From the NCBI RefSeq assembly GCF_009763805.1, contig NZ_CP046804.1, positions 1,736,001-1,800,000 on the forward strand: a stretch of DNA of 64,000 bases. Direction: 5' to 3'. The notes beneath the pieces were generated by a model. It did no database searches. It was not told where the DNA came from and saw nothing but the letters and a program-made list of their open reading frames with translations. The first letter of the stretch is position 1. The number at the start of each line of letters is the position of its first letter. This document shows positions 7,513 through 58,174 of the stretch, piece after piece. This DNA comes from Vibrio cidicii. GTDB taxonomy: Bacteria > Pseudomonadota > Gammaproteobacteria > Enterobacterales > Vibrionaceae. Made by a program: the position numbers and the translations under genes.

Positions 7513-8150
7513 AAGTGAGTTGAAAGCAGGCCAATCTGCCATGTATCTTATCCGCAAATACGCGGTTGATAAAGAAAGCGCACACACACTGCTGGATTGG
7601 TTTAAACCCTATGAAGATTTTGCGTATCGCGGGATTGGCTCGATTGAAACGCTCAAGGGAAAGAGTAATATTTCCAAAGCGATTATGGCCAAATCGAACT
7701 CACCCTACAGCCAAGATCTTATAGATAAGATGGTGTTGCTTATCAAAGAAGAGCTGCATCACTTTTATCAGGTCCTGGAAATCATGCAAAGCCGTGGGAT
7801 TGAATATCAAAGCATTCCGGCCAGCCGCTATGCAAAAGGTTTGCTCTCACACATGAAAACTCACGAACCTGAAACACTGATTGATAAGTTGATCATCGGT
7901 GGCTATATCGAGGCCCGCTCTTGTGAAACGCTTCGCCAAACTGGCTCCGCACATGGATGATGAAATCGCGAAATTTTACATCTCTTTGCTGCGTTCAGAA
8001 GCAAGGCATTACCAAGATTATCTCTCGCTAGCCGAGCAAATCGCAGGAAGAGATATCAGCGCAAGAATTACCTATTTTGGCGAAATCGAAGCACAGCTAA
8101 TCTCCTCGCCAGATAGTGACTTTAAGTTTCATAGTGGTGTGCCAGCTTAG
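7513..8150 (+). pseudogene. miaE: Resident miaE remnant, 5'-truncated and frameshifted
   Basis: The encoded sequence matches MiaE from about residue 42 (ELKAGQSAMYLIRKYAVD) to the end (HSGVPA). An in-frame TAA at 7506-7508 precedes the homology and no start region exists, so the first 40 or so codons are missing. A second defect is a one-base insertion at 7926-7928: GAAACGC where GAACGC gives CERFAKLAPHM as in the intact copy. That same GAAC to GAAAC change occurs in nine other genes here and may be an artefact. The 5' loss is real and marks the probable right boundary of the island. Confidence 0.88.
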
Positions 8151-8163
8151 GGCATCAGGCATC

Positions 8164-8191
8164 AAAAAAAAGCCCGCGTTTCAGCGGGCTT
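8164..8191. terminator. Terminator between miaE remnant and lipoprotein gene
   Basis: AAGCCCGC (8170-8177) pairs with GCGGGCTT (8184-8191) around GTTTCA. A seven-base A-run on its left serves the leftward lipoprotein gene. Confidence 0.85.
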
Positions 8192-8211
8192 AATATTCCC
8201 GAACTTTACGC

Positions 8212-56614: not shown

Positions 56615-57199
56615 ATGGAAAATTACCAACTAGTTTTAGCGTCTACCTCGCCATTTCGCCAGCAACTGCTTGAAAAACTCTCACTACCCTTTACGACCCA
56701 ATCACCAATTTGTGATGAGACCCCTTTACCAAGCGAATCTCCGCAAGACTTGGTTTTACGATTGGCACAAATCAAAGCGGAATCTTGTTCAGTAACCCAA
56801 TCAAGCTTAGTCATTGGCAGCGATCAGGTCTGCGTGATTGGTGGAGAAATTGTTGGCAAGCCACTCTCTAGAGAGCAGGCTATACAGCAACTACTCTCAC
56901 AAAGTGGTAAAAGCATTGATTTCTATACCGGTTTAGCCGTATTTAACAGCCAAACAGGACAAACGCTGAGCAAGCTAGATACCTTTCGTGTCCACTTTCG
57001 CCAACTTTCTCAAGCACAAATTGAATACTACGTCGATGTAGAACAACCTTTTTACTGCGCTGGCAGTTTCAAAAGTGAAGGATTAGGCATTGCGCTATTT
57101 GAACGATTAGAGGGCAAAGATCCCAACACTTTGATCGGGCTGCCTCTCATTGATCTGGTCGACATACTGGAAAAACACGGATGTAAAGTCCTGGGATAA
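56615..57199 (+). CDS. Maf-family nucleotide pyrophosphatase (YceF)
   Basis: 194 residues. It opens YQLVLASTSPFRQQLLEKL, with the acidic site GSDQVCVIGGEIVGKP and SEGLGIALFERLEGKDPNTLIGLPL. The YceF subgroup acts on m7GTP. Divergent from yceD and convergent with rluC. Confidence 0.93.
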   Translation: MENYQLVLASTSPFRQQLLEKLSLPFTTQSPICDETPLPSESPQDLVLRLAQIKAESCSVTQSSLVIGSDQVCVIGGEIVGKPLSREQAIQQLLSQSGKSIDFYTGLAVFNSQTGQTLSKLDTFRVHFRQLSQAQIEYYVDVEQPFYCAGSFKSEGLGIALFERLEGKDPNTLIGLPLIDLVDILEKHGCKVLG

Positions 57200-57206
57200 T
57201 CAGAAT

Positions 57207-57232
57207 AAAGGGATGACCATCATCCCTTTTTC
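57207..57232. terminator. Convergent terminator maf/rluC
   Basis: AAGGGATGA (57208-57216) pairs with TCATCCCTT (57220-57228) around CCA, then Ts. It includes the restored rluC stop codon. Confidence 0.8.
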
Positions 57233-58174
57233 TCACTTCGAAGAGAGGCTAGCACCGCCTCTAGCTGTTCGCCCATTGGTGCGTTGATCTCCATAAACGC
57301 GTCGGTAGCTGGGTGAACAAAACGTATGTTGGCCGCATGCAAAAACAGACGATCTAAGCCATGTTGACCTGTGTAAGCGTCGAATCGACGATCACCATAT
57401 CGATCGTCCCACGCAATAGGGTGGCCGCTGTACTGTGTATGGACACGAATTTGATGCGTTTCTACCGGTAATCGGACTCGCTTGCACTAACGTCGCTTGG
57501 GTAAACTTTTCCAGCACACTAAAGCGCGTTTCAGAAGGTTTGCCATTCGGATTAACGCGAACAATACTATTCACTTCGTTCTTCAACAGTGGAGCGTTAA
57601 CCATTTTACAGCTGTTTTTCCACTCCCCCATCACCAGTGCGAAATAATACTTCCTAACCGTTTTTTCGCGAAACTGCGCTTGCAAATGACGCAATGCAGA
57701 GCGCTTTTTAGCCACGAGCAAGATTCCGGAGGTGTCACGGTCAATACGATGCACCAGCTCCAAAAAGCGCGCATCCGGCCTTAACGCTCGTAGCGCTTCA
57801 ATCGCACCAAATTTTAAACCACTACCACCGTGCACCGCCGTGCCAGAAGGTTTATTAAGAATCAGCAGGTGATCGTCTTCGAAGATAATCTGCTGCTCAA
57901 GTTCCGCCACTCGGTTCAGTTTAGTGCTAGGTGCGACTTCTGGTGTTTTTTCTTCCACCGTTACAGGAGGAATACGTACCACATCGCCAGCTTGCAGCTT
58001 GTACTCAGCTTTAATACGCTTTTTGTTGACTCGCACTTCTCCCTTACGCACGATTCGATAAATCATGCTTTTAGGAACATCTTTTAATTGGTTACGCAAG
58101 AAATTATCAATGCGTTGACCAGCCATATCCTCATCGATTTCGACGGATTGGACTTTCGTTCTGATTTCGTTCAT
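57220..58174 (-). pseudogene. rluC: 23S rRNA pseudouridine synthase RluC, frameshifted
   Basis: S4 domain (AGQRIDNFLRNQLKDVPKSM) followed by the RluA-type catalytic domain with the Asp in VHRIDRDTSGILLVAK. The frame breaks at GGTAGAAACGCATC (57459-57461 on the plus strand). With AGAACGCATC it reads VQASPITGRTHQIRVHTQYS, the normal motif, and continues to a stop at 57220 for 317 residues (E. coli RluC 319). Makes pseudouridines 955, 2504 and 2580 of 23S rRNA. It lies divergent from rne, as in E. coli. Confidence 0.9.

What the first reader, a model, noticed from the sequence alone, without database searches (positions are those of the whole stretch)
7926..57461. Ten frameshifts, all the same one-base change GAAC to GAAAC
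Frame breaks occur at 7926 (miaE remnant), 13810 (metalloprotease), 17387 (ATPase), 18824 (yejA), 21358 (yejB), 23625 (lapB), 30041 (imuA), 48231 (tmk), 50274 (fabF) and 57459 (rluC). Every one is an extra A in G-AA-C. Nine are on the coding strand and one (fabF) is on the template. Nine of ten are followed by two G/C bases. Deleting the extra base restores the family sequence and length each time. Ordinary pseudogene decay would not hit one tetranucleotide, and tmk and lapB are essential or nearly so. Many other GAAC sites in the window are intact (several in dnaE2), so the event is sporadic. The likely cause is a base-calling or polishing error, perhaps triggered by a modified base in a longer motif. 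A specific mutational process is less likely.
Basis: partly seen in the sequence, partly recalled or inferred. Interest (0 to 1): 0.8.

Follow-up and report, generated by a model that had tools for sequence, protein, structure and literature searches.

The report
Phosphorothioate scars in a genome assembly
Ten genes look broken by the same extra letter, most likely because this bacterium swaps oxygen for sulfur in its DNA backbone at GAAC sites and the sequencing software misread those sites; the same scar appears in other genomes that carry the sulfur-modification genes.

Summary
All ten breaks are +1 shifts at GAAAC/GTTTC; at nine sites every spanning alignment of a relative's protein breaks there, and at fabF the evidence is weaker. 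The pattern is genome-wide: in 255,942 covered bp of this Vibrio, 35 of 36 retained +1 breaks sit at GAAAC (35 of 39 with the three dropped ones; background 5.6%).

GAAC/GTTC is the published core of Dnd phosphorothioate (PT) modification. The genome carries dndBCDE plus dptFGH, outside the window. Flanks follow the published PT preference in part. A second dnd+ Vibrio shows the scar (19 of 19 breaks); two dnd-minus relatives do not (545 kb). Of 5,426 complete E. coli genomes, 210 probes with the extra A hit four, all dnd+ (204 have dndC); 100 control probes hit none.

Best explanation: PT makes long-read consensus insert an A at a subset of GAAC sites; the genes are almost certainly intact in the cell. 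Five dnd+ Vibrio samples show no scar and 200 dnd+ E. coli were not hit, so sequencing and polishing must matter. No raw reads were available.

The parts
7925..7929 (+). GAAAC at frame break in miaE-like gene
   Evidence: (1 of 1 spanning alignment)
13809..13813 (-). GAAAC at frame break in Met-zincin-like metalloprotease gene
   Evidence: (7 of 7)
17386..17390 (-). GAAAC at frame break in ABC transporter ATPase gene
   Evidence: (10 of 10)
18823..18827 (-).
   Evidence: (11 of 11)
21357..21361 (-).
   Evidence: (4 of 4)
23623..23627 (-). GAAAC at frame break in lapB
   Evidence: (3 of 3)
30040..30053 (.). GAAAC (30040-30044) and facing GTTTC (30049-30053) at frame break in imuA
   Evidence: (3 of 3)
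48230..48234 (-). GAAAC at frame break in tmk (dTMP kinase)
   Evidence: (9 of 9)
50273..50277 (+). GAAAC (template strand) at frame break at the 3' end of fabF
   Evidence: (9 alignments break there, short weak C-terminal side)
57458..57462 (-). GAAAC at frame break in rluC
   Evidence: (9 of 9)

Best explanation
The breaks are consensus errors in a long-read assembly, caused by phosphorothioate modification. The bacterium's Dnd enzymes replace a backbone oxygen by sulfur on both strands of a subset of GAAC/GTTC sites. At strongly modified sites the sequencer or consensus caller reports one extra A (T on the other strand) in the AA step. Because both strands are modified, reads of both strands err at the same column, so the error survives consensus. 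Unmodified GAAC sites are read correctly. SHOWN: the motif, the enrichment, the flank preference, the dnd island, the same scar in a second dnd+ Vibrio and in dnd+ E. coli, its absence from the sampled DNA of two dnd-minus relatives. INFERRED: that PT is present in this isolate's DNA, that this assembly is from long reads alone, and the read-level step (polymerase stalling with a repeated pulse, or a shifted pore signal).
For: 35 of 36 retained +1 events in 255,942 covered bp lie at GAAAC, the top-ranked 5-mer, p 5e-43; 1,618 GAAC/GTTC in the same DNA are intact. dndBCDE, dptF, dptG, dptH and a PT-DNA endonuclease gene are in the genome, each over its model's cut-off, DndC in its larger piece. 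dndC itself is frame-broken at a GAAAC. T at -1 or A at +1 occurs in 5 of 35 scars against 932 of 1,618 intact sites (p 3e-7), and in 0 of 19 against 153 of 265 in dnd+ G010 (p 2e-7); the published PT preference is A/C at -1 and G/T at +1 (PMC9521924, section 11 read). No supported +1 GAAAC event in 545 kb of dnd-minus G012 and G005. 210 GAAAC probes hit 4 of 5,426 E. coli genomes, all dnd+; 100 control probes hit 0. Genes broken there include rpoC, murB and birA, essential in E. coli (recalled). Strain W2-5 was sequenced by SMRT (PMC7076156, passage). PMC9069010 (passages): PT GAAC/GTTC sites show raised nanopore errors, 3.9-4.4% of sites called in wild type against none to 0.6% in a dndC mutant. 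PMC9521924 (passages): PT at 12% of GAAC/GTTC sites, with SMRT kinetic signals there.
Against: No raw reads, and no PT measurement in this isolate. dnd+ Vibrio G006, G053, G059, G076 and G080 show no supported +1 GAAAC break in 51, 25, 18, 38 and 47 kb. About 200 of 204 dnd+ E. coli genomes were not hit by the probes. W5-6, dnd+ and from the same SMRT study as W2-5, has no frameshifted gene annotated in 50 kb (not aligned). The aligned 43 and 46 kb beside the scarred parts of STEC719 and W2-5 show no GAAC-to-GAAAC difference. So dnd and SMRT together are not sufficient; coverage, pipeline or polishing must matter. FORC_041's one GAAAC hit lies just past the rsd stop codon and could be natural. 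26 of the 36 census events rest on a single reference. Published features not reproduced: C at -2 (8 of 35, p 0.84), G at +2 in G010 (9 of 19, p 0.34); C at +1 is tolerated (8 of 35). The platform of the Vibrio assembly is unknown.
Confidence: 0.9

Rival explanations
1. The error is triggered by a methylated base in a motif that contains GAAC, not by phosphorothioate.
For: Base methylation is a known cause of long-read consensus errors (recalled). PMC9069010 notes that methylation and PT can share these sites (passage).
Against: A methylase would normally hit every copy of a defined motif (recalled); here 2.1% and 6.7% of GAAC sites are hit with only loose flanks. All four E. coli genomes hit are dnd+, which methylation does not predict. 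I did not search for methylases.
Confidence: 0.05
2. A real mutational process inserts A at GAAC, perhaps at PT sites in living cells.
For: The motif is sharp and goes with dnd.
Against: tmk, lapB, rpoC, murB and birA would be broken. dndC itself would be dead while its product's footprint persists. Hundreds of such breaks (about 670 if one search is scaled to 4.75 Mb) in one genome are not plausible in a living cell.
Confidence: 0.02
3. Generic long-read homopolymer error or ordinary pseudogene decay.
For: Three -1 events sit in G runs, so ordinary errors do exist.
Against: +1 events are at GAAAC almost exclusively; 100 probes at the other eight NAAN contexts hit 0 of 5,426 genomes.
Confidence: 0.01
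4. Programmed ribosomal frameshifting at GAAAC.
For: All shifts have the same sign and motif.
Against: Hits unrelated genes in both orientations (19 same, 16 opposite), and relatives' DNA shows GAAAC at 0 of 37 alignable sites.
Confidence: 0.005

Closest known systems
Nanopore detection of phosphorothioates by base-call error (PMC9069010; passages seen)
   Same: Dnd PT at GAAC/GTTC raises read errors; the signal depends on dndC
   Different: Read-level error rates in Salmonella; the passages seen describe no consensus insertion, frame breaks or trace left in finished assemblies
EcoWI-seq and SMRT maps of PT in Salmonella Cerro 87 (PMC9521924; passages; section 11)
   Same: GAAC/GTTC core, partial modification, A/C at -1 and G/T at +1; GTAC as a minor motif
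   Different: Uses enzyme cuts or kinetics, not assembly errors; its C at -2 is not seen here
Spurious pseudogenes from sequencing and assembly (PMC11017572; passages)
   Same: Frameshifted 'pseudogenes' that are technical, more frequent in long-read-only assemblies
   Different: Its main text has no 'methyl' or 'modif' hit, so DNA modification is not named as a cause
Dnd/Dpt phosphorothioation and restriction islands of E. coli
   Same: Same gene set: dndBCDE, a DGQHR protein, dptFGH; FORC_041 also has the PT-DNA endonuclease
   Different: In this assembly dndC itself carries the scar

Membership tests
Dnd phosphorothioation system | DndC sulfurtransferase gene | tested here: met
   TIGR03183: larger piece 342.7 bits, cut-off 290.4; smaller piece 181.8; gene frame-broken in the assembly
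Dnd phosphorothioation system | DndD and DndE genes | tested here: met
   TIGR03185 496.8 over 245.85; TIGR03184 94.1 over 71.85
Dnd phosphorothioation system | DndB regulator gene | tested here: met
   TIGR03233 466.1 over 328
Dnd phosphorothioation system | DndA or IscS cysteine desulfurase | not tested
   No search was made for it; IscS can serve (recalled)
Dpt (DndFGH) restriction partner | DptF, DptG and DptH genes | tested here: met
   TIGR03238 413.4 over 50, on 432 of 532 residues; TIGR03236 295.5 over 20; TIGR03237 1351 over 620.65
GAAC/GTTC-type PT | Sulfur at GAAC/GTTC in this isolate's DNA | not testable with these tools
   Needs iodine cleavage, mass spectrometry or raw reads; the scar position is indirect
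GAAC/GTTC-type PT | Flank preference A/C at -1 and G/T at +1 | tested here: met
   -1: 27 of 35 against 782 of 1,618, p 0.0009; +1: 24 of 35 against 811 of 1,618, p 0.04; G010 15 of 19 at each, p 0.003 and 0.03
GAAC/GTTC-type PT | C over-represented at -2 | tested here: not met
   8 of 35 against 357 of 1,618, p 0.84
GAAC/GTTC-type PT | G over-represented at +2 | tested here: inconclusive
   17 of 35 against 471 of 1,618, p 0.02; G010 9 of 19 against 96 of 265, p 0.34
Modification-induced consensus error | Error tied to a sequence context and to the modifying genes | tested here: met
   E. coli probes: 4 of 4 genomes hit are dnd+
Modification-induced consensus error | Error absent from amplified DNA or short reads | not testable with these tools
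   No reads available

The most novel reading that the evidence does not exclude
Finished long-read assemblies hold a readable archive of phosphorothioate positions: the GAAC-to-GAAAC scar marks strongly modified sites at base resolution, and its shared flank rule (T at -1 and A at +1 avoided) shows that Dnd target choice is conserved between Vibrio and enterobacteria. PT maps could then be mined from public data without new experiments, and would bear on why Dnd modifies only a minority of its sites.
Probability: 0.6. Interest if true: 0.7.

Novelty: new variant of a known kind. Interest (0 to 1): 0.62.

Why it matters
Public long-read genomes of dnd+ bacteria may contain many false pseudogenes, essential genes included; a GAAAC filter together with a dnd check would flag them. 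The same scar gives indirect PT maps from existing assemblies, which makes the question of how Dnd chooses a few percent of GAAC sites testable across species.

Tried and rejected
Considered and rejected: a longer or bipartite methylation motif (by eye and by position counts I saw no fixed element beyond GAAC in 54 contexts); real decay or a mutator (essential genes hit); generic homopolymer error; programmed frameshifting (both strands hit). An alignment-free GAAAC/GAAC ratio separates scarred genomes only weakly (0.42 and 0.39 against 0.26-0.34). Halobacteriovorax BE01, dnd+ and PacBio, needed 372 small insertions from Illumina polishing (passage): the opposite sign, so no support. Ten paper searches showed me no report of PT-caused frame breaks in assemblies; two of the ten were for strain details, I saw listings for all and passages of five papers, and subscription papers and bioRxiv are mostly not held.

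Rows dropped: 3 of 39 +1 clusters (window 41818 and 57844, supported by 1 of 4 and 1 of 9 references, and 56532, upstream of a gene start, dropped by hand); none has GAAAC. The six -1 clusters: three in G runs, three at or upstream of gene starts. Clusters with a flanking score under 60 on either side were not counted. In one search only clusters backed by at least half of their references were printed: for G010 20 of 23, G012 12 of 14, G006 2 of 3, all for the rest. (more references, stricter filter) kept 19 for G010, all at GAAAC. E. coli probes: 100 of 113 and 110 of 111 eligible sites used; controls 100 of 794. In one search one-base indels with more than three mismatches nearby were dropped, birA's among them.

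Full report
OBSERVATION. The window is G000:C2:1736001-1800000 of a 4.75-Mb, two-contig genome. All ten GAAAC/GTTTC 5-mers exist. I aligned relatives' proteins to the window with a frameshift-tolerant aligner. At nine sites every spanning alignment breaks there with a +1 shift; at fabF nine alignments break there but the short C-terminal side scores weakly. Intact long homologues exist: open frames of 616-662 aa for the eight best matches outside this genome to the solute-binding protein and 1299-1496 aa for the eight matches outside this genome to the metalloprotease.

CENSUS. I took 43 stretches of 20 kb of the same genome and used reference proteins from dnd-minus relatives G012 and G005 and from named Vibrio loci. 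References covered 255,942 bp including 36,432 of the window. There were 39 +1 clusters and 6 -1 clusters. Of 36 +1 clusters supported by every covering reference and not upstream of a start, 35 have GAAAC/GTTTC within 12 bp, against 5.6% of random positions; GAAAC ranks first of the 5-mers, p 5e-43. 26 of the 36 rest on one reference. The exception reads GTAAC; GTAC is a published minor PT motif (PMC9521924, passages). In the same DNA 1,618 GAAC/GTTC sites are intact, so 2.1% are hit. Orientation is 19 with and 16 against the gene. Relatives' DNA could be aligned at 37 of 41 sites (31 sample sites and the ten of the finding): none shows GAAAC, 14 show GAAC in at least one relative, and at 23 all aligned relatives are one base shorter; at the other 14 the DNA alignment is ambiguous.

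WHAT MODIFIES GAAC. I recalled that Dnd phosphorothioation in E. coli B7A and Salmonella Cerro 87 uses GpsAAC/GpsTTC, and predicted dnd genes (note). They are there, at C2 about 654-670 kb, outside the window: dndB, dndC, dndD, dndE on one strand; dptF, dptG, dptH, a PT-DNA endonuclease gene and a DGQHR gene on the other. The DGQHR gene is over the domain cut-off but under that of the dnd-associated model. dndC is itself split at a GAAAC.

FLANKS. EcoWI-seq reported A/C at -1, G/T at +1, C at -2 and G at +2 for modified sites (PMC9521924, section 11). Here -1 is A/C in 27 of 35 (782 of 1,618 intact), +1 is G/T in 24 of 35 (811 of 1,618), +2 is G in 17 of 35 (471 of 1,618). C at -2 is not enriched (8 of 35 against 357 of 1,618). 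T at -1 or A at +1 is rare: 5 of 35 against 932 of 1,618, p 3e-7.

OTHER VIBRIO. dndC passes its cut-off in 11 of 99 genomes of the genus sample, this one included. I took 60-80 kb of six others with few contigs. G010 shows 19 supported breaks in 39,156 covered bp, all at GAAAC (265 GAAC intact, 6.7% hit); none has T at -1 or A at +1 against 153 of 265 intact sites, p 2e-7; G at +2 is not significant. G006, G053, G059, G076 and G080 show no supported +1 break at GAAAC in 51, 25, 18, 38 and 47 kb. Dnd-minus G012 (290,696 bp) and G005 (254,419 bp) show none.

E. COLI. 204 of 5,426 complete genomes match dndC. Probes of 33 bases from K-12 core genes with one added A need an exact 28-mer, so a genome without that insertion should not match. 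100 GAACSS probes hit STEC719 and W2-5; both are in the dndC listing. 100 probes at the other eight NAAN contexts hit nothing. 110 further probes with favoured flanks hit NCCP 13963 and FORC_041; the annotation of both shows dndBCDE and dptFGH. Four of four dnd+ against 3.8% has chance about 2e-6. Alignment of seven stretches of these four genomes to K-12 (273,209 bp) gives 20 isolated one-base indels, 9 of them GAAC-to-GAAAC. By the annotation tables eight of the nine lie in genes and one just past rsd; the other eleven all lie outside genes, in rRNA spacers or intergenic DNA. The tables flag 12 genes in these stretches as frameshifted. Eight could be aligned, and all eight are at GAAAC: murB and birA (STEC719), rpoC and thiC (W2-5), dprA, yhdZ, blc and queG (NCCP 13963); birA also has a neighbouring substitution and appears only. 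The other four (an IS1 transposase, yjaB of FORC_041, a phosphoethanolamine transferase and a hypothetical gene) were not aligned. None of the ten E. coli scars has T at -1 or A at +1, but the probe choice favoured such flanks for part of them.

PLATFORM. W2-5 was sequenced by SMRT, and the paper's main text has no 'Illumina' or 'nanopore' hit (PMC7076156). PMC9521924 reports SMRT kinetic signals at PT sites; PMC9069010 reports nanopore errors there. So both platforms sense PT; which one made the Vibrio assembly is unknown. My inference for SMRT: the polymerase dwells at the sulfur and a base is pulsed twice before it is incorporated. Because PT lies on both strands, reads of both strands agree on the error.

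AGAINST. Most dnd+ E. coli genomes were not hit by the probes, and five of six further dnd+ Vibrio samples show no scar. W5-6, dnd+ and from the same SMRT study, has no frameshifted gene annotated in 50 kb, and scars in STEC719 and W2-5 are clustered. I read this as coverage and polishing, plus NCBI's screening of frameshift-rich assemblies (recalled), but did not test it.

VERDICT. A sequencing artefact with a specific biological cause. As a set of broken genes it is ordinary; as a trace of phosphorothioation it is useful, and in the searches listed under Tried and rejected I saw no earlier report.

Noticed in passing
L024 (G000:C2:655001-675000), 1-14728, and the end of L026: Complete dnd/dpt island with a PT-DNA endonuclease gene and a DGQHR gene; a similar gene set lies beside nanM in E. 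coli FORC_041.
   Followed up: yes
L179:12993: A single +1 break at GTAAC; GTAC is a published minor phosphorothioate motif, though the aligned relative reads GTGC.
   Followed up: partly
L113:11994, L114:2801, L171:14241: Three -1 breaks in runs of G, as expected of unpolished long reads.
   Followed up: no
G010 sample, L226-L228: The scar is about three times denser than in the window's genome (6.7% against 2.1% of GAAC sites); its completeness and contamination scores (95 and 5) may be affected by the false breaks.
   Followed up: partly
L110:12363-20016 (W2-5) and L109:19105-20020 (STEC719): In these E. coli genomes the scars seen cluster in a few kilobases and none was seen in the neighbouring stretch, perhaps following local read depth.
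   Followed up: no
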